Shown here one piece after another: positions 1 to 25,441 of a stretch of 29,024 nucleotides of DNA. Under the pieces are notes generated by a model that saw only the letters and a list, made by a program, of their open reading frames with translations, ran no database searches and was not told where the DNA came from. The stretch is from positions 1-29,024 of the forward strand of contig JAAERC010000192.1 of NCBI GenBank assembly GCA_024230695.1, given 5' to 3'. Each line of letters starts with the position of its first letter. Position 1 is the first letter of the stretch. A program made the position numbers and the translations under genes. Source of the DNA: Candidatus Zixiibacteriota bacterium (lineage in GTDB: Bacteria; Zixibacteria; MSB-5A5; GN15; PGXB01).

Positions 1-258
1 GATTAAGTAATCGTCATGTTCAACAGCATCGGCGTCGTCCTTATCAGCCGCATGACATTCGTAACAACCAACATCTGCCGCAAAATGTTGACTATGTCGC
101 CATTCTTTGACTAGCCCCGGCATATCGGCCTCATGGCATGTAACGCAGGCCGCCGATTCCTTGGACATCGATGTTGGAACTGTTCTGCTGGCATTGGTTA
201 CAACAAAACCAAAAAGTAGCAAAGCAGTGATTAGCATTACGAGGTTAATTCTTTTCAT
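1..258 (-). CDS. HAO-like multiheme cytochrome c, N-terminal part (partial)
   Basis: This is the first 86 residues of an exported multiheme cytochrome c whose remainder lies beyond the left edge. Residues 4-24 form a hydrophobic signal peptide. Two CxxCH haem-binding motifs are visible: CVTCH (Cys38, Cys41, His42) and CYECH (Cys65, Cys68, His69). The text between them, MPGLVKEWRHSQH, followed by a Val-Gly-Cys-Tyr-Glu-Cys-His block, resembles the start of hydroxylamine-oxidoreductase-type octahaem cytochromes. That family oxidises or reduces small N compounds or passes electrons in the periplasm; which applies here cannot be told. ATG at 258 is preceded by a strong AGGAGAGG ribosome site. The gene diverges from the HTH-regulator operon at 719. 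It could instead be another multihaem family (DmsE/NrfA-like); haem c binding is near certain, the HAO assignment moderate. Confidence 0.8.
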   Translation of the reverse strand, partial: MKRINLVMLITALLLFGFVVTNASRTVPTSMSKESAACVTCHEADMPGLVKEWRHSQHFAADVGCYECHAADKDDADAVEHDDYLI

Positions 259-709: not shown

Positions 710-718
710 TTGACAGAA

Positions 719-1489
719 ATGGATGATAAATTGGCAAATAAGGAATTTTTAACTACCAGTCAAGCAGCAAAGCTATTATCTGTCTCACCTGATACTGTTC
801 TTAAATGGGTTAAGGCCGGGAAAATAAAATCTAATAGAACCTTGGGCGGACATTTTCGAATTCCTATTTCGGAAATCGGCGTCTTTAATGGTTCTTCTTC
901 TGTAAATTTGAATACTGAGAACAATAATCATTTGGCTGTGCCATATCAATATTGCTGGGAATATTTGGCGGCAGATGGACCTATAAAATCAGAATGTAAG
1001 GATTGTATCACATTTCGATCACGGGCTAGTCGTTGCTATGAATTAAAAGATATCCCAGGAGGGTTGGGATGTTTGAATCTGATGTGCGACACCGAATGTC
1101 CCAGTTGTGAATATTTTAAAGTTGTTAATGGACAGAAAATAAATATTCTGATTCTAAGTGATAATACGCAGATAGTAAAAGATCTCGAAAGTCTCGATGA
1201 CTCCGGAATGTTTAGAATTCACTTCTCTGAAGATGAATATTCGGCCGCAATTGCAATTCAGGAGTACCGCCCAGACTATATAATCATCGATTGTTCTATC
1301 GGTAAGAAACGAACTGGGTATATTTGTAATAACTTATTTAATGACATTCGAATACCGGTAGTGCGGATCATATTAACATCCAAATCTAAAAAGATCAAAG
1401 ATTACTGCGATAAAGAGGTTTTTGGATGGATTCGCAAACCTTTTGATGTTGAGCAATTAAAAGAGTGCATCAGAGGAGTTCCCAAATAG
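719..1489 (+). CDS. HTH_17 (excisionase/MerR-like) regulator with Cys-rich segment and degenerate receiver domain
   Basis: Likely a redox-sensing transcription regulator. Counting from the TTG at 710, residues 13-60 are a winged-helix HTH of the excisionase/MerR type (TTSQAAKLLSVSPDTVLKWV). Residues 80-136 carry eight cysteines (82, 96, 99, 109, 121, 126, 130, 133). Residues 144-255 resemble a receiver domain with Asp194 at the phosphorylation position and Lys243 in an RKP motif, but the N-terminal acidic pair is replaced (ILSDNTQ). The Cys block could bind an Fe-S cluster, zinc or a disulfide; which one is not visible. I prefer ATG at 719, though neither it nor TTG 710 has a strong ribosome site. 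It is first in the operon, 35 bases before the macro-domain gene, and diverges from the cytochrome gene, its most likely target. Confidence 0.75.
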   Translation: MDDKLANKEFLTTSQAAKLLSVSPDTVLKWVKAGKIKSNRTLGGHFRIPISEIGVFNGSSSVNLNTENNNHLAVPYQYCWEYLAADGPIKSECKDCITFRSRASRCYELKDIPGGLGCLNLMCDTECPSCEYFKVVNGQKINILILSDNTQIVKDLESLDDSGMFRIHFSEDEYSAAIAIQEYRPDYIIIDCSIGKKRTGYICNNLFNDIRIPVVRIILTSKSKKIKDYCDKEVFGWIRKPFDVEQLKECIRGVPK

Positions 1490-1524
1490 GAAATTAGTGC
1501 TAATAATAGTAAAGGAGCTGTGTA

Positions 1525-2055
1525 ATGGCAGATAGTATCAAAGTGAAAAACTGCAATCTGAGATTATTAAAGGGTGATATCACCGATTTTGATATCGAAT
1601 CGTTTGTATATTACGCCACCGAGGATTTGGCCCTTGGTTCTGGATTTGGAACGGCCATAGCGGTTAGAGGAGGCCCGACAATTCAAAAAGAACTCAACGA
1701 AATTGGTAAGATTAAAATGACCGAAGTGGTAATTTCTGCGGCTGGTGAGATGAAAGCAAAATATATTGTTCATGCCAATGGTCCCAAATTTCAGGAGGAA
1801 GACCTTCCGGAAAAACTCAAAACAACAATTATAAATTCATTGAAACGAGCGGAAGAAAAGGGAATCAAAGCAATTGCTTTTCCACCAATGGGTGCCGGAT
1901 TTTATGGCGTTCCTTTAGATCAGAGTGCTGAGATCACTCTGACCACAATAAAAGAGTACTTATCAGGAGAAGCCAAATTGGATGATGTTGTAGTCTGTTT
2001 AAATGATAGGCGTGAATATATTGAATTTGAAAAGAAATTTTCATCATTGAAATAA
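1525..2055 (+). CDS. macro-domain protein (atypical, NAAN motif absent)
   Basis: A 176-residue single-domain protein of the macro (ADP-ribose-binding) fold. The adenine-contacting Asp is in LLKGDITDF (Asp18). The glycine-rich loop GSGFGTAIAVRGGP (38-51) and the second phosphate loop PPMGAGFYGVP (120-130) match family loops. The usual Asn-Ala-Ala-Asn of hydrolytic members is replaced by Tyr-Tyr-Ala-Thr (29-32), so ADP-ribosyl hydrolase activity is doubtful; ligand binding or an adaptor role is more likely. An AAAGGAG site precedes the ATG. It lies between the regulator and the membrane cytochrome b gene (16 bases downstream), implying a role tied to that electron-transfer complex. Family call firm, function unknown. 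Confidence 0.8.
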   Translation: MADSIKVKNCNLRLLKGDITDFDIESFVYYATEDLALGSGFGTAIAVRGGPTIQKELNEIGKIKMTEVVISAAGEMKAKYIVHANGPKFQEEDLPEKLKTTIINSLKRAEEKGIKAIAFPPMGAGFYGVPLDQSAEITLTTIKEYLSGEAKLDDVVVCLNDRREYIEFEKKFSSLK

Positions 2056-2071
2056 TTAAAGGGAGCTACCT

Positions 2072-2743
2072 ATGTTTGATTTAGAATTTGTTAGAGGACC
2101 GCTTCATGACATTGCTTTGGCTGTTATGATGGTCGTATATTTTATTAGATTATACTGGTTGACCAGATTTGTTGCCGGGCAGGAACGACAGGCGCCAACC
2201 GGGATGGGTGATACTAATCCTCGTAAAGGATTTATATACTCTTGGGGAAATGTTGGTATGCCTTGGGCGATGGAATCAACACGGACAAAATTATTTTTGT
2301 ATTTTCAATTTGTTATTTTTCATCTGGCCGTTACAGCGGCAATTATCCTGATGTTTTCGATCTCGTTTTTCTTCAAAGACACCCCGCTTCCTGCTCAACT
2401 CGCACTCGCCTTTAAAATAATTATTGGGGCCGGTTTTGTTGTTGGCGTATTAAGAATTATCCGTCGTATTGGAAGTAAATATATCAGAGCCATTAGTTCT
2501 CCAGATGATCATTTCTCACTCTGGCTGTTAACAAGTTGGTTTTTGTTCGGATATTTGGCGGCAGCCAATAATATTGCCGATGGCGAATGGAAACTGATGA
2601 CTTTCTTTGTTATGGGTTCATTCTTTTTGGTCTATGTTCCATTTTCGAAAATATCTCATTATCTGTACTATCCATTTACTAGATATTATCTGGGCAAATC
2701 ACTGGGAAGACGAGGTGTCTTTCCAATAAAGAGATTTCTATAA
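2072..2743 (+). CDS. cytochrome b-type membrane subunit (TmcC/DsrM/NarI-like)
   Basis: A 223-residue integral membrane protein with about five hydrophobic segments (roughly 11-33, 76-100, 112-131, 148-168, 175-194). Histidines 12, 84, 147 and 196 sit at or near membrane helices and are candidate haem b ligands, as in nitrate-reductase gamma and the TmcC, HmeC and DsrM subunits. Such subunits exchange electrons between quinones or periplasmic cytochromes and a cytoplasmic HdrD-like Fe-S partner. That partner is the next gene, 38 bases downstream, the order expected for Tmc/Hme/Dsr modules. The exact haem count and direction of electron flow cannot be read from sequence. Confidence 0.75.
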   Translation: MFDLEFVRGPLHDIALAVMMVVYFIRLYWLTRFVAGQERQAPTGMGDTNPRKGFIYSWGNVGMPWAMESTRTKLFLYFQFVIFHLAVTAAIILMFSISFFFKDTPLPAQLALAFKIIIGAGFVVGVLRIIRRIGSKYIRAISSPDDHFSLWLLTSWFLFGYLAAANNIADGEWKLMTFFVMGSFFLVYVPFSKISHYLYYPFTRYYLGKSLGRRGVFPIKRFL

Positions 2744-2781
2744 TTTATTACATTTAGAATGACAAATTTTTGGAGAATAAA

Positions 2782-4533
2782 ATGTCAAAAGAAAGATCAC
2801 ATAAAGCCCAGAAAGTAATTGATAGACTGGGCAAAAAGTTAAACCGGCAAATAGTCGGTTCATTAGTGGCCTGTGTTCATTGCGGAAATTGTACCGACTC
2901 ATGTCACTATGTTTTGGCAAACCCCGGTGATCCGACTTATGCACCGGCATACAAAGCCGATAAGATAAGATCGATTTTTAAACGTCACTATGACTGGACC
3001 GGCCGGATATTTCCGTGGTGGGTTCATGCCAAAAGTTTATATACCGACGAGGATCTTGAGGATCTAAAAGATACAGTGTTTGGGAAATGTACAAATTGTC
3101 GTCGCTGTACTATCAACTGCCCGATGGGTGTTGATTTGGCGACCTTTAACAGAATGGCTCGTGGTTTATTAGTTTCCGTCGGCGTTATGCCTGAAGGCGT
3201 TTCGGTTGTTTCTAAGGATCAATGGGAAATCGGCAATCAGATGGGAGTGCTAAAAGAGGATTATGTCGATACTCTTGAATGGCTTTCCGAAGAAATGCAG
3301 ATGGAAGATCCCAAAAGTCCCGGTATTCCGATTGATACTGTCGAAGCCGATGTTGTTTACTCGATAAATCCTCGGGAAGTTAAATATGACCCGCGAACTA
3401 TCTCTGATGCCGCAATGATATTTAACGCCGCCGGTGAAAATTGGACGATGCCTGCCGAAGATTGGGACATGACCAACTTTGGACTTTTTTCCGGCGATGA
3501 TGATCTTGGCGGAGGTGTTGCTCGTCGTTTATTTGAAAAAGTTGATGAGCTAAAAGGCAAAAAGCTTGTAATATCAGAGTGCGGTCATGGTTATCGTTCA
3601 ACTCGTTGCGAAGGACCAAACTGGGCCAAACGCGATGTCAACTTTACCATGGAGAGCTCTGTTATAACAATGATCAACTATATTAAAGAAGGTAAGATCA
3701 AAGTTGATAAATCCAAGAACCCTGAAAAAATGACTTTTCATGATTCATGTAACAATGCTCGTAGCTGTGGTCTGACCGAAGAGCCGCGCGAATTATTAAA
3801 ATTAGTGAGCGAAGATTTTCAGGAAATGTACCCTAATCGCGCCGAGAATTATTGTTGTACAGGCGGCGGTGGTGCTATGTCAATGTCAGAATATACACCA
3901 CGCAGATTAAAATCGGCAAAGGTTAAGGCCGACCAGCTTAAAGCGACCGGTGCTAAGGTAGTTGTAACATCATGTCATAATTGCGTCGATGGGTTGACAG
4001 ATTTAATTAAACATTATAAATTAGACATGAAAGTTACTCAACTTGTAAATCTGGTATCAAACGCTTTGGTTATTGAAAAACCTGATGAAGTAGAAACAAC
4101 TCCGACCGAATCAACTCCGACTGCAACCGAAGATGTCAGCTTGAAAGGTTACAAAATTCTTGTCGCCGATGATGAACCGGATTTTGTTACTTTTGTATCG
4201 ACTGTCCTTGAGGATAACGGCGCCGAAGTTGTTAAGGCATTTGACGGCAACCAGGCTCTGGAAATGGCCCGCAAGGAAAAACCTGATATGATGACGCTCG
4301 ATATTACTATGCCGGGTAAATCCGGAATTGAAGTATTTGAGATTCTCAGAGGTGATGATGAGCTGGCAAATATTCCGGTCTGCATTATGACTGGTAAACC
4401 GGAATTGCGTAAGCTAATTTATGAACGTGACGTTAGACCGCCAGAAGGATATATGGATAAACCGATTGATGAAGAATCAATTGTGATTAATATCCGTAAG
4501 ATTCTGGAACTTGCCAAAGATAAGACAAAATAG
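2782..4533 (+). CDS. HdrD/TmcB-like iron-sulfur electron-transfer protein fused to a receiver domain
   Basis: 583 residues. ATG 2782 is chosen over TTG 2770 because GGAGA lies 6 bases upstream of it. Two [4Fe-4S] motifs come first: Cys31/34/37/41 and Cys103/106/109/113, the latter followed by Pro. A CCG-type cysteine region follows: Cys267/276, Cys323/329, the Cys358-Cys359 pair before four glycines, and SCHNC (Cys398/401), as in HdrD, GlpC and TmcB. A Thr/Pro/Glu linker (about 434-452) leads to a complete receiver domain (about 456-580) with Asp463/464, phospho-acceptor Asp507, Thr537 and Lys560. HdrD-like proteins move electrons between a membrane cytochrome b and cytoplasmic carriers or disulfides. 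A receiver fused to one is unexpected and implies phospho-control of electron flow or an Fe-S-gated signalling output. A histidine kinase gene follows at 4561. Confidence 0.88.
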   Translation: MSKERSHKAQKVIDRLGKKLNRQIVGSLVACVHCGNCTDSCHYVLANPGDPTYAPAYKADKIRSIFKRHYDWTGRIFPWWVHAKSLYTDEDLEDLKDTVFGKCTNCRRCTINCPMGVDLATFNRMARGLLVSVGVMPEGVSVVSKDQWEIGNQMGVLKEDYVDTLEWLSEEMQMEDPKSPGIPIDTVEADVVYSINPREVKYDPRTISDAAMIFNAAGENWTMPAEDWDMTNFGLFSGDDDLGGGVARRLFEKVDELKGKKLVISECGHGYRSTRCEGPNWAKRDVNFTMESSVITMINYIKEGKIKVDKSKNPEKMTFHDSCNNARSCGLTEEPRELLKLVSEDFQEMYPNRAENYCCTGGGGAMSMSEYTPRRLKSAKVKADQLKATGAKVVVTSCHNCVDGLTDLIKHYKLDMKVTQLVNLVSNALVIEKPDEVETTPTESTPTATEDVSLKGYKILVADDEPDFVTFVSTVLEDNGAEVVKAFDGNQALEMARKEKPDMMTLDITMPGKSGIEVFEILRGDDELANIPVCIMTGKPELRKLIYERDVRPPEGYMDKPIDEESIVINIRKILELAKDKTK

Positions 4534-4560
4534 TTTATTTTGTAGATAGAGGTGTAATCG

Positions 4561-6024
4561 ATGGAACATCACAGGCGACGATTCTCTGATAAGGTATTTG
4601 ATGCCATTCCCGGATATCTGACCGTGCAAGATCGGGATTTTAAGGTGATTGAATCCAATGATGCTTTTAGAAGAAACTTTGGAGATCATAAAGGCAAATA
4701 CTGTTATCAGATATACAAACATCGTCCCGAAAAATGTGAGGATTGTCCTGTCGATCGCACCTTTCGTGACGGCCAGAAGCATCGAAGTGATGAAATAGTC
4801 ACTACCAAAGATGGCCGTAAAGTAAATGTTCTGGTTTATACTACTCCGATTTTCGATGATGACGGCAATGTCACCCAGGTCGTCGAGATGTCAACCGATG
4901 TGACTGAAATCAAACAGCTTCAAAAGCAGATCAAGGACAGTCAGGCCCGTTATCAACAGCTTTTTGAGGAGTCGCCCTGTTTTATTTCTATTCAGGACGA
5001 ATCATTAAATATTATTGATGCCAATAGACTCAATCGTGAAACATTTGGAGTCGGTTTTGGTGAAAAATGTTATAAACTCTACAAGCATCGCAATAAGGAA
5101 TGTGAACCATGTACTGTTAGGCAAACATTTCAAGATGGTGAAGCTCGTAATCATGAGGAAGTTGTAACTTCGATGTCAGGTGAACCAATAAATGTTTTGG
5201 TCCATACCGCACCACTGCGTAATGCCGATGGCGAGATCGAAAAAGTGATCGAGATGAGTACCGATATTACTCAACTCAGAAAATTGCAGGATAAACTAAG
5301 CTCGGTCGGATTACTTATTGGTTCAATCGCTCATGGCATAAAAAATCTCCTTAATGGCCTCGATGGTGGGATATATCTGGTTAATACCGGGCTAAAAAAA
5401 GATAATCGTGAACGGATTGATAAAGGCTGGGAGATCGCTCTGCGTAATGTTCGGCGAATTCGTTCGATGGTGATGGATATTCTATATTATGCCAAGGACC
5501 GTGAACCAAACTGGGAAGAGATCTCCACATTTGAAATGGTTGAGGATGTTTGTAAGATAATGAAAGAGCGGGCCGAGAGTCAGGATATCGATTTTACCTA
5601 TGAACTTGACGGTGATGTTGGTGATTTTGAGGCTGATAAGCAGGCAATTCGCTCTATGTTGCTAAATCTAATTGAAAACTCAATCGATGCTTGCCGAATA
5701 GATACAAATAAATCCGACCATACGCTGGTTGTAAGATTGCATGGAAATTCCGATAAGGTTGTTTTTGAAATTGAAGATAATGGTATCGGAATGGATCAGG
5801 AGACGCGCGAGAAAGCATTTTCTCTGTTTTTCTCATCAAAAGGAGCCGGCGGAACCGGATTAGGTCTATTTATTGCCAATAAAATTGCTCAGGCGCATGG
5901 TGGATGTATCGATGTCCAGTCAGAAGAAGGCAAGGGTTGTCATTTTGTTGTTGAATTACTAAGAAAAAGACCCGATATTGAGGGGAATGATGAAAATTCT
6001 GAACCACTGTTGGGAGACAAATGA
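4561..6024 (+). CDS. sensor histidine kinase with two cysteine-bearing PAS domains
   Basis: 487 residues with no transmembrane segment, so probably cytoplasmic. Two tandem PAS domains (about 8-118 and 130-238) each carry the same insert: Cys48-x10-Cys59-x2-Cys62 and Cys170-x10-Cys181-x2-Cys184, both around the text YKHR. Next come a HisKA-type helix with His258 (LIGSIAHGIKNLLNGLDG) and a HATPase domain with N-box Asn373, G1 DNGIG (406-410) and G2 GGTGLGLF (430-437). The identical Cys spacing suggests redox or metal sensing. It lies 27 bases after the HdrD-receiver fusion and overlaps the next receiver gene by 4 bases, so its partners are very likely those two receiver domains. Confidence 0.9.
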   Translation: MEHHRRRFSDKVFDAIPGYLTVQDRDFKVIESNDAFRRNFGDHKGKYCYQIYKHRPEKCEDCPVDRTFRDGQKHRSDEIVTTKDGRKVNVLVYTTPIFDDDGNVTQVVEMSTDVTEIKQLQKQIKDSQARYQQLFEESPCFISIQDESLNIIDANRLNRETFGVGFGEKCYKLYKHRNKECEPCTVRQTFQDGEARNHEEVVTSMSGEPINVLVHTAPLRNADGEIEKVIEMSTDITQLRKLQDKLSSVGLLIGSIAHGIKNLLNGLDGGIYLVNTGLKKDNRERIDKGWEIALRNVRRIRSMVMDILYYAKDREPNWEEISTFEMVEDVCKIMKERAESQDIDFTYELDGDVGDFEADKQAIRSMLLNLIENSIDACRIDTNKSDHTLVVRLHGNSDKVVFEIEDNGIGMDQETREKAFSLFFSSKGAGGTGLGLFIANKIAQAHGGCIDVQSEEGKGCHFVVELLRKRPDIEGNDENSEPLLGDK

Positions 6025-6407
6025 GTATGGCAGATAAAAAGAAAATTTTAGTTGTTGACGATGAACCGGATATTGTGGATTGGTTTTCAACTCTTTTTGA
6101 AGATAATGGATATTCCACAATTACGGCGCGCGATGGTTTTGACGGTTTTGAAAAAGCCGAATCGGAATTACCCGATCTTATTACTTTGGATATAACAATG
6201 GATAAAGAGTCCGGCGTTAAAATGTACCGTAAGCTTCACGATTCCGAAAAAACGAACAAGATCCCGGTAATAATGATTACTGGCATTGACCCTCAATTCA
6301 AAAAATTTATTGAAAACCGCAAACAAGTCGATCCACCGGCGGCCTATTTTGAAAAACCAGTCGATAAAGACGAACTGCTAAAAAAAATCAAAGACCTTAT
6401 CGGTTAA
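6021..6407 (+). CDS. single-domain response regulator (CheY/Spo0F-like)
   Basis: A 128-residue stand-alone receiver domain with acidic pair Asp13/14, phospho-acceptor Asp57, Thr87 and Lys112. It has no output domain, so it acts by protein contact or as a phosphorelay intermediate. Its start overlaps the kinase stop (ATGA), with GGGAG upstream, indicating translational coupling. The C-terminal text VDPPAAYFEKPVD matches VRPPEGYMDKPID in the receiver fused to the HdrD-like protein, so the two are paralogues and probably share the neighbouring kinase. A second in-frame ATG at 6027 is possible. Confidence 0.92.
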   Translation: MSMADKKKILVVDDEPDIVDWFSTLFEDNGYSTITARDGFDGFEKAESELPDLITLDITMDKESGVKMYRKLHDSEKTNKIPVIMITGIDPQFKKFIENRKQVDPPAAYFEKPVDKDELLKKIKDLIG

Positions 6408-6439
6408 TAAGCTTATTTGATAAGAACGGTTGATTTATA

Positions 6440-6475
6440 ATAGAGCCATATTATTGTATGGCTCTATTTGTTTGT
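6440..6475 (+). terminator. intrinsic terminator of the redox operon
   Basis: A perfect 11-bp stem (6440-6450 with 6457-6467, core AGAGCCAT/ATGGCTCT), a 6-base loop and a T-rich run (TTTGTTTG) follow the last receiver gene by about 30 bases. Confidence 0.85.
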
Positions 6476-17446: not shown

Positions 17447-17806
17447 TTATACTACTCCAAGTACCCAGCTGTCCGGGTCTTCTAAAAATTCAATCATCCG
17501 GCGCAGGAACTGAACAGCATACCCGCCATCAACTACACGATAATCAAATGACATACTAAAAATCAATATTGGTCTGATGACAATTTCACCATTTCGCGTA
17601 TATCTTTGGCGATCTGCAATAACGATTTTTTGTTCACAATGTTTTATCACAGGGACAATTAACGAATTATCACGAACAACCGCCATACCTATATTAAAAT
17701 ATTTTTTGACATGCAGGTTATCGCCTTCAAAAGTAGAGTTGATCCATGGGCATTCTTTGGCCGCAAATATGATAGCCTTGGCGATACAACTTTCTGAAAT
17801 GCTCAT
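17447..17806 (-). pseudogene. remnant of 2-oxoacid dehydrogenase E2 acyltransferase
   Basis: An open frame of 119 residues matches only the far C-terminal catalytic domain of E2. The lipoyl and E3-binding domains and the first part of the catalytic domain are absent. The text FNIGMAVVRDNSLIVPVIKH (37-56) is intact, but the expected stretch containing GGTFTISNLG is missing between residues 58 and 62 (about 60 residues lost in frame). The catalytic motif DHRxxDG reads DYRVVDG, so the active-site His is Tyr89. It cannot be a working acyltransferase. It sits directly upstream of lpdA, as E2 would. Confidence 0.85.
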
Positions 17807-18159: not shown

Positions 18160-18579
18160 ATGACAGGATCAAAAATAAATAGAAATTCTTTCCAAAGAGA
18201 TGTTATATTGGAGGAACTAAGGAAGGTGAAATCACACCCATCGGCGACTGCTCTATATGAAATAGTTAAAAAGAGAATTCCCAATATTAGTCTTGGTACT
18301 ATTTATAGGAATCTTGAACTGCTTTCCCAAAAAGGGATAATTCAAAAACTGGGACTAAACGGAACTGAAGCTCGGTTTGATGGTACTATTGTCAGTCATT
18401 ATCATATTTCCTGTACAAATTGCGGCCGGATAGATGATATTGATGACCTTCCTTATGAAAATAACGAAGATGAAATGACCAAAATAATAAATGGATATCA
18501 GGTCAGTGGGTGCCATAAAAACTTTTTTGGTATCTGTCCAAAATGTTCAGAAGAAGAAGATAATAACAAAATAAAATAA
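18160..18579 (+). CDS. perR: PerR-like Fur-family repressor
   Basis: 139 residues: winged helix (about 10-75, ISLGTIYRNLELLSQKGI) and dimerisation domain. The zinc site has CxxC pairs Cys85/88 and Cys126/129. The residues matching the Fe/Mn regulatory site of Bacillus PerR (His37, Asp85, His91, His93, Asp104) are His26, Asp74, His80, His82 and Asp93. The Asp at the last position favours PerR-type peroxide sensing over Fur. GAGAGGA precedes the ATG. It heads a same-strand run of peroxide and iron genes, its probable regulon. Fur/Zur identity is not excluded. Confidence 0.85.
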   Translation: MTGSKINRNSFQRDVILEELRKVKSHPSATALYEIVKKRIPNISLGTIYRNLELLSQKGIIQKLGLNGTEARFDGTIVSHYHISCTNCGRIDDIDDLPYENNEDEMTKIINGYQVSGCHKNFFGICPKCSEEEDNNKIK

Positions 18580-18599
18580 TCAAAAATGAGGTAAGGCAA

Positions 18600-19037
18600 A
18601 TGTCTACCAAGGAAACACAGGAAAAAATTATAGATAACATGCGACGCTGGCAGAAAATTGAAAATGCATCGGTTGCGTCAACCGGTGAAGTTATCAACAA
18701 AACCGATAATCCGCTTATCCGTCTTGTGATGGAAATCATTCAACGCGATTCACAGATGCACTATCGGGTGCAGGAATTGGTTGCCGATAGTTTGGAATCG
18801 AAAACGATCTCATTAAATCCCGATGAATTGACTGAAGTTTGGGATCTGATTGAAAAGCATATCAAACTTGAACTTAAAACGATTGAATTGGCCAATGAAG
18901 CCAAAGAGGCTCTTAAAGGCAAAAAGATGGTCGTTCAGGAATATCTTCTCGATTATCTGCTAATTGATGAACAAAAGCATGATAAAATTTTAGAAACATT
19001 AGAAACAATTAAAAAGGGAATGTATCCTTACGGATGA
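18600..19037 (+). CDS. small ferritin-like helical protein, unknown role
   Basis: 145 residues, all helical in appearance, with candidate metal-site residues Glu91 (KLELKT) and the ExxH pair Glu124-His127 (DEQKHDK), the pattern of the second half of a di-iron four-helix bundle. The first half has Asp50 and His54 rather than a clean ExxH, so a complete di-iron site is uncertain. It lies 20 bases after the PerR-like gene and 45 bases before the peroxiredoxin, placing it in the peroxide response. I do not recognise a named family. Confidence 0.65.
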   Translation: MSTKETQEKIIDNMRRWQKIENASVASTGEVINKTDNPLIRLVMEIIQRDSQMHYRVQELVADSLESKTISLNPDELTEVWDLIEKHIKLELKTIELANEAKEALKGKKMVVQEYLLDYLLIDEQKHDKILETLETIKKGMYPYG

Positions 19038-19082
19038 TACTCCAAATAAGAAACTAATTTATAATTATTAAGGAACAAAAAA

Positions 19083-19670
19083 ATGTCAAATTTAGTAACC
19101 AAAGAAGCCCCGGATTTCACCGCTCAAGCTGTTATGCCGGATAACTCATTTGCTGAGTTGAAACTCTCATCATATCGTGGTAAATATGTAGTCTTATTTT
19201 TCTACCCGCTCGATTTCACTTTTGTCTGTCCATCTGAGATCATTGCTTTTAATAAGGCACTTGATAAATTTAAGAAAAAAAATACGGAAGTTATTGGTGT
19301 TTCGGTAGATTCACATTTCACCCACCTTGCCTGGAAAAACACAGATACCAAAGATGGTGGAATTGGGAATATCCAATATCCGTTGGTTGCCGATCTCAAC
19401 AAGGAAATTTCCCGTGACTATGATGTTCTCCTTGAGGGCGGCGTGGCTTTACGCGGTCTTTTCCTGATCGACAAAGAAGGTATCATCCGTCATTCGGTAG
19501 TCAACGATTTGTCTCTGGGGCGAAATGTTGATGAAGCAATAAGACTGGTTGATGCTTTGCAGTTTACAGAAAAACATGGTGAGGTTTGCCCGGCCAATTG
19601 GAAAGAGGGTGATGATGCCATGAAACCGACTGCTGAGGGGGTAGCGGAATATTTGGCCGAGCACGCATAA
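19083..19670 (+). CDS. typical 2-Cys peroxiredoxin (AhpC/Prx1)
   Basis: 195 residues; reduces H2O2, organic peroxides or peroxynitrite in the cytoplasm. The peroxidatic site is [11 protein letters not shown] (Cys49, with Pro42 and Thr46) and the resolving Cys is in GEVCPANW (Cys169). The GGIG loop is present, but the C-terminal Tyr-Phe tail of over-oxidation-sensitive enzymes is absent, so it should be a robust type. No AhpF or thioredoxin is adjacent; the reductant may come from elsewhere or from the local rubredoxin and flavoprotein. A terminator-like hairpin follows at 19691. Confidence 0.95.
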
Positions 19671-19690
19671 TTTACATAATAGTTTAATAT

Positions 19691-19715
19691 CCGGCGGGGA
19701 GAATATCTCCGCCGG
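19691..19715 (+). terminator. GC-rich hairpin after the peroxiredoxin gene
   Basis: CCGGCGGGGA and TCTCCGCCGG pair over 10 bp (one G-U) around a 5-base loop, 20 bases after the stop. It has only a weak T-run, so partial termination or mRNA 3'-end protection is likely. Confidence 0.55.
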
Positions 19716-19734
19716 TAAAATAGGGAGAATCAAA

Positions 19735-20112
19735 ATGAATTACCAAAAAAATGAAATATACAAATGCGATAAATGTGGGCTTATTGTTGATACGGTTCGC
19801 GGCGCAGAAGGGCATTTGGTTTGTTGCGGTTTGGACATGCGATTGCTTAAAGAAGGCGAAATTGATGCCGCAACTGAAAAACATGTTCCGGTTATTGAGA
19901 AAGTCGATGGTGGAGTTAAAGTCACTGTTGGTAGCGTTAATCACCCGATGGAAGAGGACCATTTTATCGAATGGATAGAAATAATACTTGACGGGAAAGT
20001 GTTTCGGCAGTTTCTTAAGGCTGACGATAAACCAGAGGTTTTCTTTAAAATAGATGGGGATAATATCACAGCTCGTGCTTATTGTAATCTCCATGGTCTC
20101 TGGAAGGCATAG
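19735..20112 (+). CDS. dfx: desulfoferrodoxin (superoxide reductase, 2Fe type)
   Basis: 125 residues; reduces superoxide to peroxide without making oxygen. The N-terminal desulforedoxin centre has Cys11, Cys14, Cys30 and Cys31. The catalytic centre II has His50, His70, His76, Cys117 and His120, with the conserved Glu48-Lys49 just before the first His (EKHVPVIE). All ligands are present, so it should be active. It lies downstream of the peroxiredoxin that can remove its peroxide product. AGGGAG precedes the ATG. Confidence 0.96.
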   Translation: MNYQKNEIYKCDKCGLIVDTVRGAEGHLVCCGLDMRLLKEGEIDAATEKHVPVIEKVDGGVKVTVGSVNHPMEEDHFIEWIEIILDGKVFRQFLKADDKPEVFFKIDGDNITARAYCNLHGLWKA

Positions 20113-20122
20113 AAAAATAATA

Positions 20123-20154
20123 TCTATTGGGGGATATTATCCCCCAACAATAGA
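20123..20154 (+). terminator. strong hairpin after dfx
   Basis: TCTATT and GGGGGAT pair with ATCCCCC and AATAGA around a 3-base loop, with a small bulge. It follows the stop by about 10 bases, with no long T-run. It may act as an attenuator or mRNA stabiliser splitting the island into expression blocks. Confidence 0.55.
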
Positions 20155-20187
20155 TTAAAATGTAGTAAGGTAAAACAGGAGAAAGAG

Positions 20188-20643
20188 ATGAAATTTAATT
20201 CAGTTGACGCCGTGCTAGACTTTGCTATCACCAAAGAAGAAGAAGCCGCCGATTTTTACACTAAAATGGCAGCCAGAATGACTAAACCGGCTATCAAAGA
20301 AGTTTTTGAACAGTTTGCCCTAGAGGAGAAAAGTCATAAAGCAAAATTGGAACAGGTAAAAGCAGGAAATCTTTTGCTGACCTCCAAACAGAAAATATTG
20401 AATTTAAAGATTGTTGATGTCATGGTTGACAATCGATTTGATGATGGCGACTTTGACGTTCAGGATGCTATGCTTTCGGCTATGAATTCTGAGAAGGCAT
20501 CGTTTAAACTCTATAGTGATCTGGCCAATTCGACTGATAATGCCGGTTTGAAAGAAACTTTCCTGGCACTGGCTCAGGAAGAGGCAAAGCATAAATTACA
20601 ATTTGAAATTGACTATGACGATCACGTTTTTCAGGAAAATTAA
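20188..20643 (+). CDS. erythrin-like ferritin-like protein 1 (rubrerythrin without rubredoxin domain)
   Basis: 151-residue four-helix bundle. Di-iron ligands are a Glu in the cluster KEEEAADFY (about Glu18), Glu47-His50 (EKSH), Glu102 and Glu132-His135 (EAKH), giving the paired ExxH motifs of rubrerythrin. There is no C-terminal FeS4 domain, so electrons must come from a separate rubredoxin such as that at 23584. Likely a peroxidase or iron-handling protein in the cytoplasm. It is first of three similar consecutive genes (gaps 17 and 20 bases). Confidence 0.8.
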   Translation: MKFNSVDAVLDFAITKEEEAADFYTKMAARMTKPAIKEVFEQFALEEKSHKAKLEQVKAGNLLLTSKQKILNLKIVDVMVDNRFDDGDFDVQDAMLSAMNSEKASFKLYSDLANSTDNAGLKETFLALAQEEAKHKLQFEIDYDDHVFQEN

Positions 20644-20660
20644 TTTTTTAGGGAGTGAAT

Positions 20661-21164
20661 ATGACTTTTGAAGAGGCAATCAAAACGGCCATTGAATATG
20701 AAATAAAAGTTAGAGATACTTATTTAAACTCTTTGAACTCAATAAAAGATGAAATGGGTAAAAGAGTATTCAAAGTTCTCGGCGATGAAGAGCAGGGCCA
20801 TGTCGACTTTCTTGAGTGTAAACTTGGCGAGTGGAAAAAAACCGGAACAGTCTCATCAAGTGATTTGAAAACGGTCGTACCATCGTTTGAGAAAATCGAA
20901 AAAGGCGTCAAGCAATTGGATAATCATTTAACTGAAAACCAATTTGAAACTGAACTTGAAATGCTCAAAAAGGCACTAGTGATGGAACAGGAAACATCAG
21001 ACTTTTATCGCAAGATGGTTGATGAGTTGGATAGTAACGGCGATTTTTTCAAACCGTTTCTTGAGATTGAAGATGGGCACACTGCAATAGTGCAAGCTGA
21101 GATCAATTATCTGACCAAAACCGGTTCATTTTTTAATTTTGAGGAATTTGGTCAGGAATATTAG
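20661..21164 (+). CDS. erythrin-like ferritin-like protein 2
   Basis: 167 residues; ATG 20661 preferred over GTG 20655 because GGGAG lies 5 bases upstream. Putative di-iron ligands: Glu14, Glu44-x2-His47 (EQGH), Glu111 and Glu137-x2-His140 (EDGH). The helix order matches the proteins before and after it, but sequence identity is low, so the duplication is old. No rubredoxin domain and no export signal are seen. Probably a cytoplasmic di-iron peroxidase or sensor; the exact role is not visible. Confidence 0.78.
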   Translation: MTFEEAIKTAIEYEIKVRDTYLNSLNSIKDEMGKRVFKVLGDEEQGHVDFLECKLGEWKKTGTVSSSDLKTVVPSFEKIEKGVKQLDNHLTENQFETELEMLKKALVMEQETSDFYRKMVDELDSNGDFFKPFLEIEDGHTAIVQAEINYLTKTGSFFNFEEFGQEY

Positions 21165-21184
21165 TCTTTGGTGGAATTAATATT

Positions 21185-21697
21185 ATGACAAATAGTAAAA
21201 AGAAACTGGCCGATGGTTTATTAAAAGCAATCAAGGCTGAAAAATATGGACATAGTTTTTATCTGATGGCCGCCAAAAGCACCGAAGATAAAAAGGGGCA
21301 GGAAGTTTTTAAGACTCTTGCCCGTGAGGAACTCGACCATATGCAGTTTTTGAAAGATCAATATAGATCAATTGTGGATACAGGTCAGCCAAATAAGGCG
21401 CTAAAATTGGGAACCCGAACCCTTCTTTCCGAAGCATCTCCCATTTTTTCCGAAAAACTGAGATCGCGTATAAAAGATGCTAATTTTGAAATGACCTCAT
21501 TGTCTATTGGGATTCAACTTGAACATGATGCCATGATTTACTATCGGGAGCAATCTGAGACGGTTGATGATTCAATAATGAAGGATTTTTATGCCAAACT
21601 TGCTGATTGGGAAGCGGGGCACTATCAAGCACTATTGAAACAGCAGGATGAATTAAAAGAAGACTTTTGGTCATCCAGCGGTTTTTCTCCTTTTTAG
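21185..21697 (+). CDS. erythrin-like ferritin-like protein 3
   Basis: 170 residues with candidate ligands Glu19, Glu49-x2-His52 (ELDH), Glu113 and Glu143-x2-His146 (EAGH). The tail EDFWSSSGFSPF is a short aromatic/Ser-rich extension, similar in place to FFNFEEFGQEY in the preceding protein. It belongs to the rubrerythrin-like family without rubredoxin. The 49-base gap before the ferritin gene is the longest of this block. Function presumed peroxide or iron related. Confidence 0.78.
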   Translation: MTNSKKKLADGLLKAIKAEKYGHSFYLMAAKSTEDKKGQEVFKTLAREELDHMQFLKDQYRSIVDTGQPNKALKLGTRTLLSEASPIFSEKLRSRIKDANFEMTSLSIGIQLEHDAMIYYREQSETVDDSIMKDFYAKLADWEAGHYQALLKQQDELKEDFWSSSGFSPF

Positions 21698-21746
21698 TCA
21701 AACGGGAGCATTTTAAATTTAAGTATGAAAACAAAGGATAAGACTT

Positions 21747-22250
21747 ATGATTAATAAAAAAATGGAAACGGCTCTAAACGATCAAATAACATTCGAGATA
21801 TATTCGGCTCATCTGTACCTATCGATGGCTGCTTATTTAGATTCTATTGATCTTCCTGGTTTTTCGCACTGGATGAGAATTCAGTATCAAGAAGAGATTG
21901 CTCATTCATTTAAAATGTTTGATTATGTCATTGAGCGCGATGGCCGGGCCAAAATATGTCAGATCGATGAACCGCAATTTGAGTGGAAATCTGTACTTGA
22001 CGCTTTTGAATCTGCTTATGCACATGAACAAAAAGTAACCAGCCGTATTAATAATCTTGTTGATATTGCTCTGGCCGAAAAAGACCATGCATCTCATATA
22101 TTTTTGCAATGGTTTGTTAATGAACAGGTCGAAGAGGAAGCCACAGCTAAGGGAATTATCCAACAGTTAAAAATGCTTGCTGACTCAAAGGCAGGTCTTT
22201 TTCAGATAGATCGTGAATTAGGTCAACGAGTATTTACACCACCAGTGTAA
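21747..22250 (+). CDS. ftnA: ferritin (FtnA type)
   Basis: 167-residue iron-storage subunit that oxidises Fe(II) and stores it as mineral in a 24-mer cage. The ferroxidase residues fall at the same numbers as in E. coli FtnA: Glu17, Glu49, Glu50, His53, Glu94, Glu126, Gln127, Glu129 and Glu130. No haem-binding Met typical of bacterioferritin is evident. AAAGGA precedes the ATG. It fits the island by removing the iron that would drive Fenton chemistry. Confidence 0.95.
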   Translation: MINKKMETALNDQITFEIYSAHLYLSMAAYLDSIDLPGFSHWMRIQYQEEIAHSFKMFDYVIERDGRAKICQIDEPQFEWKSVLDAFESAYAHEQKVTSRINNLVDIALAEKDHASHIFLQWFVNEQVEEEATAKGIIQQLKMLADSKAGLFQIDRELGQRVFTPPV

Positions 22251-22273
22251 GCAAGTAAAACAATTTGGGAACT

Positions 22274-22945
22274 ATGAGCAGTAAAAAAGAAAAATTAAAA
22301 GTAAAGGAAATCCTGATACAAAGAGATTTGGAAGGATTTCAGAATTGGGCTGAAAATGCTCGAAACCCCCAACGAGCTCTTTTGTCATTGGCTTATGATT
22401 CTGATGAATTAGTGGTGCGGAGAGCAATTGAAGCAATAGGAAAAGTTGCTTCAATGTGGGACAAAAGCGGCACTCAAAAAGCTCGTAATTTGGTTCGTCA
22501 GCAATTTTGGATGATGAGTGATGAATCAGGTGGATTGGGTTGGCATTCTCCTGAGATCATCGGAGAAATCCTGGTGAATGTCCCAAAGTTAATAAATAAG
22601 TATGCACCATTGCTTCCAAGCTATTTTGACGAAGAACCTTTTGAAAGAGGAAGCTATTTGGCAGTATACAGGGTGGCATCTATTAACCCCAAGCCATTTG
22701 TAGATATAACAAATGAACTGATAAAATCATTAAATAATCCAGATGATTATATTAAGGCCTATGCGCTGATGTCTCTCGCCGAGATTGATTTGTCTCTAAT
22801 TAAAAATAATGAAGATAAATATAGTAACGAAACAGGAAATATTGAACTGTATGATTTTAAAAGCGGTCAATTTGTGTCGACCGATTTGGGGGATGTTTTT
22901 AAAAAGGTGATGGATAATAATAATTCATCAAAAAGTACCGCATAA
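22274..22945 (+). CDS. DVU0298-like HEAT-repeat protein
   Basis: 223 residues. ATG 22274 is preferred over TTG 22265. The N-terminal part (about 10-75) reads like HEAT repeats (LLSLAYDSDELVVRRAIEAI), followed by the strongly conserved-looking text RQQFWMMSDESGGLGWHSPE (about 72-91) and a second helical repeat set. This matches my recollection of the DVU0298 family of sulfate reducers, whose function is unknown. No catalytic site is seen; a protein-binding scaffold is likely. It sits between ferritin and rubrerythrin in the same operon. Confidence 0.75.
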   Translation: MSSKKEKLKVKEILIQRDLEGFQNWAENARNPQRALLSLAYDSDELVVRRAIEAIGKVASMWDKSGTQKARNLVRQQFWMMSDESGGLGWHSPEIIGEILVNVPKLINKYAPLLPSYFDEEPFERGSYLAVYRVASINPKPFVDITNELIKSLNNPDDYIKAYALMSLAEIDLSLIKNNEDKYSNETGNIELYDFKSGQFVSTDLGDVFKKVMDNNNSSKSTA

Positions 22946-22983
22946 ATATTATTGTTTGATAAGATTTGAGGAGGAACTGTAAA

Positions 22984-23559
22984 ATGGGCGAACTAAAAGG
23001 AAGTAAAACCGAAAAAAATATACTTACCGCGTTTGCAGGTGAATCACAAGCAAGAAACCGATATACTTATTTCGCAAGCAAAGCTAAAAAAGAAGGATTT
23101 GTTCAAATTTCAGCTATTTTTGAGGAAACGGCCAATCAGGAAAAGGAACATGCCAAAAGATTATTCAAATTTCTCAAAGGCGGTGATGTCGAAATTCAGG
23201 CTTCTTTTCCCGCTGGAGTAATTGGCAGTACAGCCGAAAATCTTAAGGCATCGGCCGGTGGTGAACATCATGAGTGGGAAATAATGTACCCCGAATTTTC
23301 TAAAATTGCCCGCGATGAAGGTCTTGAGAATATTGCCAAAGTATTTGATGCCATTGCTATTGCCGAAAAACATCATGAAGAACGGTACCTGGCCTTTTTG
23401 AATAATATCGATTCAGATACAGTTTTTGAAAAAGATAAGAAGGTCGTTTGGCGTTGCCGTAATTGTGGATATACACATGAAGGGCAAGAAGCACCCGCCG
23501 TATGCCCAGCGTGTGCGCATCCGCGTGCTCACTTCGAAGTCAAAGCGGAAAATTGGTAA
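22984..23559 (+). CDS. rbr: rubrerythrin (complete, with rubredoxin domain)
   Basis: 191 residues. ATG 22984 is chosen over TTG 22966 because AGGAGG lies 9 bases upstream of it. The di-iron site has Glu20, Glu53-His56, Glu94, Glu97 and Glu128-His131. The C-terminal FeS4 centre has Cys158, Cys161, Cys174 and Cys177. It is the classic NAD(P)H-linked H2O2 reductase of anaerobes, taking electrons through a rubredoxin. The rubredoxin gene follows by 24 bases and a flavin reductase after it, giving a complete electron route. Confidence 0.97.
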   Translation: MGELKGSKTEKNILTAFAGESQARNRYTYFASKAKKEGFVQISAIFEETANQEKEHAKRLFKFLKGGDVEIQASFPAGVIGSTAENLKASAGGEHHEWEIMYPEFSKIARDEGLENIAKVFDAIAIAEKHHEERYLAFLNNIDSDTVFEKDKKVVWRCRNCGYTHEGQEAPAVCPACAHPRAHFEVKAENW

Positions 23560-23583
23560 AGGCTGTTATCCGGGAGTAAATTT

Positions 23584-23745
23584 ATGAAAAAATATGAATG
23601 CGATATTTGTGGATGGGTGTATGATCCTAATGAAGGACTACCTGACGAAGGAATTAAACCAGGAACGGCTTTTGAAGATTTACCGGATGATTTTGAATGT
23701 CCAGAGTGTGGTGCCGGTAAAGATGATTTTTCGCCGGTAGAATAA
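23584..23745 (+). CDS. rub: rubredoxin
   Basis: 53 residues. The single Fe is held by Cys6, Cys9 (CDICG), Cys39 and Cys42 (CPECG); the texts WVYDP and EDLPDDF are family hallmarks. It carries single electrons to rubrerythrin, desulfoferrodoxin and the domain-less erythrins. It lies between rubrerythrin and the FAD reductase, so its donor and acceptor are both adjacent. GGGAG precedes the ATG. Confidence 0.97.
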
Positions 23746-23782
23746 TTATTGATAATATGAAACATGAGGAATTGAAATAAAT

Positions 23783-24607
23783 ATGGCAGTCAAAGAGCTA
23801 AACGCTATTGTTAGTCAGAGAATAGAAGTGTCACAAGGTTTGGTTAAACTAAGAGTTATTCCTGATGGCTGGGAACTTCCTGATTTTAAACCCGGACAGT
23901 ATGGAGTTCTGGGATTACCTGGTTCTACTTCAAGATACAGCTTGGCTGATGCTGAGGAAACTGCACCTGATCCTGATAAAATTATTATGCGTGCTTATTC
24001 GGTTGCATCGTCATCTGTTGCCAAAGAGTATATTGAATATTATATCGGCTTGATCCGTTCGGGAGCATTGACCCCTCGGTTACTTAATTTAAAACCGGGA
24101 GATAAATTATGGATGGGTCCGAAATTTAAAGGGATGTTCACATTAGCAGAAGTCCCTGAGATATACAATTTAATTTTAGTCGCCACAGGAACGGGTGTCG
24201 CTCCGTATATGAGTATGATTCGTTCTGAACTTGCTAAGGGTGGAAGGAGCAAATTTACCGTTATTCATGGCGCCTGTCACTCAATAGATCTGGGTTACAA
24301 TGATGAGCTGATTACTCTCGCCGCGGCTAACGAAAATTTCACATACTTTCCTATACTCAGTCATGCGCATGAGGAGGTTGCACCATGGACGGGCCATGAG
24401 GGGTTTGTACAGGAGCTATGGACCAATGGAACTATAAAAGATGCTTGGGGATTTCAACCAACTCCGGAAAATACGCATCTATTTTTATGTGGAAACCCAA
24501 TGATGATAAAAGCGATGACTGAAATAATGGAAAAAGAAGGTTTTAAGAAACACTCTAAAAAAGAATCAGGACAAATTCATACTGAACAGTTTTTTGTGAA
24601 ATTGTAA
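23783..24607 (+). CDS. ferredoxin/rubredoxin-NAD(P)+ reductase (bacterial FNR family)
   Basis: 274 residues. FAD-binding motif RAYSVASS (70-77), NADP-binding loop GTGVAPY (136-142) and CGNPMMI (Cys236) define the FpR-type flavoprotein; the end HTEQFFVKL is near the family's C-terminal aromatic region. It transfers hydride electrons from NAD(P)H to one-electron carriers. Placement 37 bases after rubredoxin suggests rubredoxin is the acceptor here. Whether NADH or NADPH is preferred cannot be told. Confidence 0.88.
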   Translation: MAVKELNAIVSQRIEVSQGLVKLRVIPDGWELPDFKPGQYGVLGLPGSTSRYSLADAEETAPDPDKIIMRAYSVASSSVAKEYIEYYIGLIRSGALTPRLLNLKPGDKLWMGPKFKGMFTLAEVPEIYNLILVATGTGVAPYMSMIRSELAKGGRSKFTVIHGACHSIDLGYNDELITLAAANENFTYFPILSHAHEEVAPWTGHEGFVQELWTNGTIKDAWGFQPTPENTHLFLCGNPMMIKAMTEIMEKEGFKKHSKKESGQIHTEQFFVKL

Positions 24608-24628
24608 GTTTAGGATTGGATAAATTAT

Positions 24629-25441
24629 ATGTTTGATTGGTTTAAAGAATTACACCCAGTTATGCAAGCTCTGTTGGCCACTATTTTCACGTGGTTTATG
24701 ACTGCTTTGGGAGCGGCTCTTGTTTTTCCTGTCAAACAGATGCATCGCAAAACGCTGGATGGTATGCTTGGCTTTGCGGCGGGAGTGATGATTGCGGCCA
24801 GCTATTGGTCGCTCCTTGCGCCGGCAATTGAGATGTCAGAAGGGCAAGCTATTCCTTCATGGGTTCCGGCTGTATCGGGATTTTTACTGGGTGCTTTCTT
24901 TTTGAGATTAATAGATAAAATTCTACCACATCTTCACCCCGGAATAGATATAAGTAAAGCCGAGGGTGTTAAAACCAGTTGGCAGAGAACAACTCTCTTG
25001 GTTCTGGCAATCACTCTACACAATATCCCTGAAGGACTTGCTGTTGGTGTTGCTTTTGGAGCCGCGGCGGCAGGTTTGGAATCAGCCACATTGGCCGGAG
25101 CAATTGCTCTGGCTATTGGAATCGGCATCCAGAATTTTCCGGAGGGAACAGCTGTTTCAATGCCTTTAAGGCGGGAAAATTACTCGCGGATGAAAAGTTT
25201 CTGGTATGGCCAATTATCTGGTGTGGTTGAACCGGTAGCTGGTGTATTGGGTGCCGCGCTTGTTATCCTAGCCCGACCAATTTTGCCTTATGCCTTGGCT
25301 TTTGCCGCCGGTGCAATGATTTTTGTTGTAATTGAAGAATTGGTACCGGAATCTCAAACTGGCGGGCATTCTCATTCCGCAACAATGGGCGCGATACTTG
25401 GTTTCGCGGTTATGATGACACTGGATGTTGCGCTTGGCTAA
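24629..25441 (+). CDS. ZIP-family metal transporter (GufA-like)
   Basis: 270 residues with about eight membrane helices. The metal-site motifs are HNIPEG (His131, Asn132, Glu135) in TM4 and QNFPEG (Gln168, Asn169, Glu172) in TM5, with Glu201 (VVEP) in the next helix. A His-rich loop (GGHSHS) lies near the end. ZIP proteins import Zn, Fe or Mn; the GufA branch is poorly characterised. As the last gene of the island's main run it may bring in the Fe or Mn needed by its di-iron enzymes and repressor. Substrate is inferred only. Confidence 0.9.
   Translation: MFDWFKELHPVMQALLATIFTWFMTALGAALVFPVKQMHRKTLDGMLGFAAGVMIAASYWSLLAPAIEMSEGQAIPSWVPAVSGFLLGAFFLRLIDKILPHLHPGIDISKAEGVKTSWQRTTLLVLAITLHNIPEGLAVGVAFGAAAAGLESATLAGAIALAIGIGIQNFPEGTAVSMPLRRENYSRMKSFWYGQLSGVVEPVAGVLGAALVILARPILPYALAFAAGAMIFVVIEELVPESQTGGHSHSATMGAILGFAVMMTLDVALG

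What the first reader, a model, noticed from the sequence alone, without database searches (positions are those of the whole stretch)
2782..4533. HdrD/TmcB-like iron-sulfur protein fused to a receiver domain
The sequence shows two [4Fe-4S] motifs and a CCG-type cysteine region followed, after a Thr/Pro-rich linker, by a receiver domain with every key residue (Asp463/464, Asp507, Thr537, Lys560). HdrD-family proteins carry electrons and receivers carry phosphoryl signals; I know of no well-described protein that joins them. It suggests phosphorylation tunes electron transfer, or that cluster state gates signalling.
Basis: partly seen in the sequence, partly recalled or inferred. Interest (0 to 1): 0.82.

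Follow-up and report, generated by a model that had tools for sequence, protein, structure and literature searches.

The report
Electron-transfer protein fused to signal receiver
A bacterial iron-sulfur protein that probably passes electrons to or from the cell membrane carries a built-in signal-receiver domain, and the same fusion sits in the same gene set in many unrelated bacterial groups, which suggests that cells may switch this electron path directly by phosphorylation; that switch is not yet tested.

Summary
The fusion is real. Window 2782-4533 encodes one 583-residue protein: two [4Fe-4S] motifs, one CCG domain, a flexible linker and a receiver (REC) with all catalytic residues. It is no assembly error: 78 of 80 loci from named genomes (15 phylum labels) hold it in one uninterrupted frame. 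Around it lies a conserved operon: macro-domain protein, NarI/TmcC-like membrane anchor, HdrD-REC, PAS-PAS histidine kinase, lone REC. The Fe-S part folds like EtfD, a menaquinone-linked electron wire, keeps all six ligands of its noncubane cluster D2 and lacks three of four D1 ligands; no cytochrome gene is conserved, unlike Tmc. Relatives exist as separate genes in a row, so the fusion joins neighbours; one lineage seems to have lost the REC again. Best reading: a quinone-linked electron-transfer pair whose Fe-S subunit is a direct two-component target. That phosphorylation changes electron flow is inferred, not shown. Regulators and kinases beside tmc/hmc genes are already known; the fusion was in none of the papers that my ten searches listed. 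New variant of a known kind.

The parts
2782..4533 (+). HdrD/TmcB/EtfD-type Fe-S protein fused to a receiver domain (583 aa)
2872..3120 (+). two ferredoxin-type [4Fe-4S] motifs (C31,C34,C37,C41; C103,C106,C109,C113)
   Evidence: Fer4_8; Cys in 79 of 80 loci, one (L079) not aligned
3733..3984 (+). CCG domain with ligands of a noncubane cluster (C323, C358, C359, C398, C401; sixth ligand H269 lies before it)
   Evidence: PF02754; ligands mapped from EtfD: Cys and H269 80 of 80
4069..4149 (+). variable Thr/Pro-rich linker
   Evidence: pLDDT under 50 at residues 435-451; stretch 429-457 spans 14-59 residues, median 25, in 79 loci
4150..4512 (+). receiver domain (D463, D464, D507, T537, Y557, K560)
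   Evidence: pLDDT mostly above 90
2072..2743 (+). NarI/TmcC-like membrane anchor, probable single haem b (H84, H196)
1525..2055 (+). macro-domain protein, conserved operon member
   Evidence: PF01661 87 bits; 74 of 74 loci with room, at 40 bits or more
4561..6024 (+). soluble PAS-PAS histidine kinase; C48/C59/C62 and C170/C181/C184 in the PAS domains, H258
   Evidence: Cys and H258 in 69 of the 69 loci with a kinase match of 380 bits or more; present in 68 of 70 loci with room
6021..6407 (+). stand-alone receiver (REC2), DVU0259-type, overlaps the kinase stop by 4 bases
   Evidence: NF045717 113 bits, cut-off 160; 55 of 69 loci with room
710..1489 (+). MerR-type HTH, Cys-rich middle, receiver-like end: probable local regulator (not in most loci)
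   Evidence: 20 of 67 loci with room, 21 of 80
6439..6468 (+). terminator-like hairpin at the end of the operon
   Evidence: 13-pair stem; 6 such sites in the region against 4.6 expected in shuffles, so not significant alone

Best explanation
The gene encodes the soluble Fe-S subunit of a two-subunit, membrane-anchored electron-transfer module, with the receiver as its on-board control input. Electrons would run between a cytosolic donor or acceptor (not identified), the noncubane CCG cluster, the two cubane clusters, the haem b of the NarI-like anchor (2072-2743) and menaquinone, as proposed for EtfD. The cysteine-bearing PAS-PAS kinase (4561-6024) would autophosphorylate at H258 and pass the phosphoryl group to D507 of the fused receiver and to the stand-alone receiver (6021-6407); the phosphorylated receiver would then change electron flow or partner docking. 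Shown here by sequence: the fusion, intact catalytic residues on kinase and receivers, cluster ligands, predicted fold, conserved operon. Inferred: phosphotransfer, its effect on electron transfer, the direction of electron flow, menaquinone as partner.
Against: No phosphotransfer or activity data. The model gives a flexible linker, so no fixed REC-HdrD interface is predicted. One lineage (L081-L087) seems to have lost the fused REC and keeps an HdrD 62-64% identical, so the REC is dispensable there. For the fused REC the same partial Mantel test gave no alpha1-specific excess with the kinase DHp (0.456 against 0.649 for the rest), only a general shared history. The alpha1 signal fades at n=6 after heavy thinning (p 0.26), and relatedness or gene conversion are not excluded. 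No cytosolic partner gene stood out among neighbours. One locus (L072) has no aligned acidic pair in its receiver.
Confidence: 0.5

Rival explanations
1. The redox complex is the sensor and the receiver is where its state enters signalling: the cluster or quinone redox state changes how fast the fused receiver takes or loses phosphate, and the signal leaves through the stand-alone receiver and the MerR-type regulator.
For: A stand-alone REC is present in 55 of 69 loci with room; an upstream MerR-REC regulator in 21 of 80, or a homologue of an Rrf2-family protein in 17 of 80 (one of the 17 checked by Pfam, which names the family iron-dependent); the main fused clade has a Cys pair (C276, C329) next to the CCG ligands (26 of 26 rows, none of 27 others) that could act as a redox switch.
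Against: About half of the loci show neither regulator upstream (some contigs are too short to tell); receivers normally are inputs to the attached domain (general knowledge); the kinase has its own conserved Cys in two PAS domains and so its own candidate sensor.
Confidence: 0.25
2. The fused receiver is a tether or phosphate sink: it holds the soluble kinase at the membrane complex, where the Cys-PAS domains read the local redox state, or drains phosphate from the second receiver, without changing electron transfer.
For: Flexible linker; two receivers per kinase whose alpha1 helix co-varies within loci; REC loss tolerated in one lineage, where five of seven loci show a REC-kinase gene pair nearby.
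Against: Conservation of the T/S and Y/F switch residues suggests a working conformational output rather than mere docking.
Confidence: 0.18
3. Ordinary HdrD homologue with a decaying or irrelevant receiver; or an assembly chimera.
For: Separate-gene relatives and one REC-less lineage exist.
Against: Fusion over both parts in 80 loci (78 in one clean frame) and in the 120 listed proteins, with receiver residues kept.
Confidence: 0.03

Closest known systems
EtfD (ETF:menaquinone oxidoreductase, M. smegmatis, PDB 9ojn)
   Different: EtfD is one chain that includes its membrane part and also has the linear [3Fe-4S] cluster D1 (PMC13083937, passages); here the anchor is a separate gene, three of four D1 ligands are absent (P197, M230, G270) and a receiver is added.
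TmcBC / HmcEF of sulfate reducers
   Same: Same pair of a NarI-like anchor and an HdrD-like Fe-S protein; true tmc loci also show a receiver gene behind the tetrahaem gene (6 of 12 short loci), and tmc/hmc genes beside response regulators and kinases are described (PMC5109826, passages read).
   Different: No TmcA-type cytochrome (an ORF with three or more CXXCH occurs in only 12 of 80 loci); scores far under the TmcB and HmcF cut-offs; receiver fused instead of separate; macro protein in the operon.
DsrK of DsrMKJOP
   Same: Same architecture of ferredoxin plus CCG domains; eight loci carry a BLAST match to a DsrK nearby (the one of L048 checked, 743 bits).
   Different: 249 bits against a cut-off of 400; receiver added; operon without a periplasmic multihaem gene.
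DVU0259-family (DivK-like) receivers
   Same: The DVU0259 model is the best receiver model for both receivers of the operon.
   Different: 78 and 113 bits against a cut-off of 160; the fused one is not a stand-alone protein.

Membership tests
TmcB (NF045724) | family score over curated cut-off (735 bits) | tested here: not met
   306.8 bits
TmcB (NF045724) | tetrahaem cytochrome TmcA encoded next to it | tested here: not met
   No open frame of the window has three or more CXXCH; the only one with two is the divergent, truncated ORF at 258..1 (-); ORF with three or more CXXCH in 12 of 80 loci anywhere in the held DNA; present in 12 of 12 true TmcB loci
TmcB (NF045724) | NarI-like membrane partner TmcC | tested here: met
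HmcF (NF045711) | family score over cut-off (750 bits) | tested here: not met
   329 bits
DsrK (NF045796) | family score over cut-off (400 bits) | tested here: not met
   249.3 bits
HdrD | two complete CCG motifs for two noncubane clusters (definition recalled) | tested here: not met
   One Pfam CCG stretch only; first CCG ligands replaced (P197, M230, G270)
EtfD | soluble fold with two [4Fe-4S] sites and a His-capped noncubane cluster D2 | tested here: met
   (model and ligands; the clusters themselves not observed)
EtfD | linear [3Fe-4S] cluster D1 ligands | tested here: not met
   one of four kept (C267)
EtfD | accepts electrons from ETF | not testable with these tools
   no ETF-like cluster was recognised among neighbour families (read by eye); no assay
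Response regulator receiver | acidic pair, phosphoacceptor Asp, Thr/Ser, Lys | tested here: met
   D463/D464, D507, T537, K560; conserved in the 80 loci with the exceptions listed
Response regulator receiver | phosphorylated by a partner kinase | not testable with these tools
   kinase gene adjacent, H258 in 69 of 69 aligned kinases; no assay

The most novel reading that the evidence does not exclude
A widespread phosphorylation-gated electron wire: a two-component system that acts on electron flow itself instead of on transcription, through a receiver built into a quinone-linked Fe-S subunit, with a macro-domain protein as a further conserved partner.
Probability: 0.42. Interest if true: 0.82.

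Novelty: new variant of a known kind. Interest (0 to 1): 0.62.

Why it matters
Receivers and kinases have been noted beside Tmc/Hmc genes (PMC5109826, passages) without a stated purpose in what I read. A conserved fusion of the receiver to the Fe-S subunit, in genomes with 15 phylum labels, turns that adjacency into a testable statement: the target of the phosphate is the redox complex. If true, bacteria could change membrane electron flow directly by phosphotransfer, and the macro-domain gene found in all 74 loci with room may add a nucleotide-linked input.

Tried and rejected
Assembly error or frameshift chimera: rejected. Membership in TmcB, HmcF or DsrK: scores under cut-offs. Periplasmic cytochrome as a further part: the truncated ORF at window 258..1 (-) with two CXXCH is divergent, and multihaem genes are not conserved. 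Further conserved neighbours: the clusters with at least 7 loci beyond the core were mostly antisense frames, besides Rrf2, an NtrC-like regulator, MerR, a NarI-like/DsrK-like pair and a few scattered genes (named by eye except where says so). Longer fusions hinted at by long open frames (G573, G503, G077): upstream reading-frame artefacts and a run of N. REC tree: a first tree without unrelated receivers put the separate REC of the split loci beside the fused ones with weak support (77); with six background receivers (14 sought) that grouping was not resolved and not rejected (AU p 0.41), while the fused RECs stayed one clade, 100/98. HdrD trees: the 53-row quick tree and a careful tree of 36 of those rows (17 dropped: near copies, long branches and outer groups) agree that the unfused 62-64% group lies inside the fused ones; AU p 0.0025 against the fused as one clade. 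Partial Mantel: no alpha1-specific excess for the fused REC against the kinase. Papers with DVU0258-DVU0262 are not in the library and the one with DVU0263 was only seen in the listing; the arrangement in D. vulgaris is recalled apart from what PMC5109826 says. PMC2702500 (passages) names TmcBCA clusters but adds nothing on a fusion. Six loci with DVU0259-like receivers from a small class were fetched and not followed further. Structure listings: no fold search was made on the Fe-S part alone, and the list is filled by receivers.

Full report
Observation. Window 2782-4533 (+) is one open frame of 583 residues. Pfam places Fer4_8 at 29-117, CCG at 318-401 and Response_reg at 459-570, all over their cut-offs. 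No whole genome is held for the window.

It is a family, not an accident. The 120 listed of 3403 homologues, the window's own protein included, all carry CCG and Response_reg; those with a source organism are named Zixibacteria, one Planctomycetota. A scan of genome contigs with 23 of those 120 proteins aligned gave 212 relatives; the 80 kept match over both parts and are 62-90% identical. In 78 of 80 one uninterrupted frame holds the ferredoxin Cys, D507 and K560; L071 ends with its contig and L079 has a broken frame. By NCBI labels 64 of the 80 fall under 15 phylum names: Zixiibacteriota 16, Acidobacteriota 13, Myxococcota 10, Thermodesulfobacteriota 6, Planctomycetota 3, Calditrichota 3, Gemmatimonadota 3, Electryoneota 2, LCP-89 2, and one each of Poribacteria, Pseudomonadota, Ignavibacteriota, Bacteroidota, Hydrogenedentota and Elusimicrobiota; 16 have none. 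The titles are of metagenome-assembled genomes, so labels may err. Uninterrupted fusions were counted in 23 of 98 genomes of the Zixibacteria phylum sample (three more, G064, G077 and G079, are broken by contig ends, a gap or a stop), 10 of 247 of the Syntrophaceae genome's phylum, 5 of 119 of an acidobacterial phylum sample (one of the five matches has a stop inside) and 1 of 121 of a gemmatimonad sample. Each sample includes its centre genome, which was chosen because it has the gene.

The operon. In the 80 loci, counting only those with room on the contig, the same strand holds a TmcC-like anchor in 76 of 76, a macro-domain protein in 74 of 74 (40 bits or more; two are short pieces), the kinase in 68 of 70 and a stand-alone receiver in 55 of 69. 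In the window the genes from 710 to 6407 follow with gaps of 16-38 bases and one 4-base overlap and end at a terminator-like hairpin. Upstream regulators differ: MerR-HTH with a receiver-like end in 21 of 80, Rrf2 homologues in 17 of 80, another MerR type in 3 of 80, no locus with the first two together (one Rrf2 checked by Pfam). ORFs with three or more CXXCH lie in only 12 of 80 loci, and no frame of the window has three, so no periplasmic cytochrome gene belongs to the module.

The signalling parts. The fused receiver keeps D507 in 80 of 80, T or S at 537 in 80 of 80, K560 in 79 of 79 aligned, and Y or F at 557 in 78 of 79 aligned. In the 69 loci with a kinase match of 380 bits or more, H258 and six PAS cysteines (C48, C59, C62, C170, C181, C184) are kept in 69 of 69; four loci with shorter or weaker kinase matches were not counted. 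Both receivers of the operon match the DVU0259 (DivK) model best among receiver models, under its cut-off. Within a locus the two receivers are more alike in helix alpha1 (466-478) than across loci: z 4.2, p 0.0002, 55 loci, against z 0.48 for the rest of the domain. Sliding windows peak at alpha1; thinned sets give p 0.0004 (26 loci), 0.015 (12) and 0.26 (6). That alpha1 is the docking helix for kinases is recalled knowledge (a listed PDB title, 4ja2, names rewired residues of such an interface). This fits one kinase serving both receivers. A partial Mantel test (54 loci) found a shared history of all two-component parts beyond that of HdrD; against the kinase DHp, alpha1 stood out for REC2 (0.552 against 0.241) but not for the fused receiver (0.456 against 0.649).

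How it arose. Seven have TmcC and an unfused HdrD (62-64% identical; L081-L087); in five of them (L081, L082, L085-L087) REC and kinase genes follow after about 1.2 kb, two short stretches show none. In L081 UspA-like and HEAT-repeat-like genes lie between (names recalled from sequence). Five Zixibacteria-sample genomes have a TmcC-HdrD pair without the kinase/REC set nearby (L092, L093, L094, L097, L098; L094 has one weak 50-bit kinase-like hit). In a careful tree the unfused 62-64% group lies inside the fused ones (AU p 0.0025 against one fused clade), while the fused receivers form one clade (100/98). The simplest reading is one fusion and one later loss. True tmc loci show TmcC, TmcB and a tetrahaem gene in 12 of 12, and a REC gene in 6 of 12 of the 3.7-4.3 kb stretches. 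PMC5109826 (passages) describes response regulators and kinases beside tmc/hmc genes, as in D. vulgaris. So adjacency is known; the fusion is the new step.

A side result. C276 and C329 occur together in 26 of 26 rows of the main fused clade and in none of 27 other rows, which include two more distant fused proteins. The macro gene was also not found beside those two (L096, L099). A redox-active pair beside the CCG cluster is possible but untested.

Verdict. Real, conserved, and as a fusion absent from the papers listed by ten searches of an open-access library, two of which showed only the top of long lists. The mechanism, phosphorylation gating of a quinone-linked electron relay, is the best fit at about one in two.

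Noticed in passing
window 18160-25441 (+): A Fur-family regulator followed by a peroxiredoxin, a desulfoferrodoxin, several rubrerythrin/ferritin-like genes and an NAD-binding oxidoreductase: an oxygen/iron stress island (Pfam for six of them; the rest by sight).
   Followed up: partly
window 17447-17806 (-): A 119-residue piece of a 2-oxoacid dehydrogenase acyltransferase catalytic domain (best stretch starts at profile position 64 of 232) next to a dihydrolipoamide dehydrogenase-like gene (by sight): looks truncated.
   Followed up: no
window 1525-2055 (+): The macro-domain gene is as conserved as the redox pair (74 of 74 loci with room) although no macro domain is known to me in such operons; the usual catalytic loop residues look changed (from recall).
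   Followed up: partly
window 4561-6024 (+), residues 48-62 and 170-184: Each PAS domain of the kinase has an invariant Cys triad of the form C-x10-C-x2-C, 69 of 69 kinases compared: a possible metal, Fe-S or thiol sensor.
   Followed up: partly
L048, L057, L063, L070 and others, mostly within 10 kb: A DsrK-like gene (one of them with a NarI-like gene in front, L040) lies near the operon in 19 of 80 loci and a closer DsrK match in 8 of 80, by BLAST at over 250 bits (examples checked).
   Followed up: partly
L095 1016-4969; L096 4467-8407: A more distant HdrD-REC-kinase gene trio without fusion, closer to DsrK (326 bits, under the cut-off): another redox subunit paired with two-component genes.
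   Followed up: no
window 710-1489 (+): HTH plus Cys-rich middle plus a weak receiver: may be a redox-reading transcription factor for this operon.
   Followed up: no
L072 1993-3651: A shorter fused protein (552 aa) whose receiver has no aligned acidic pair: possibly a receiver that cannot be phosphorylated.
   Followed up: no
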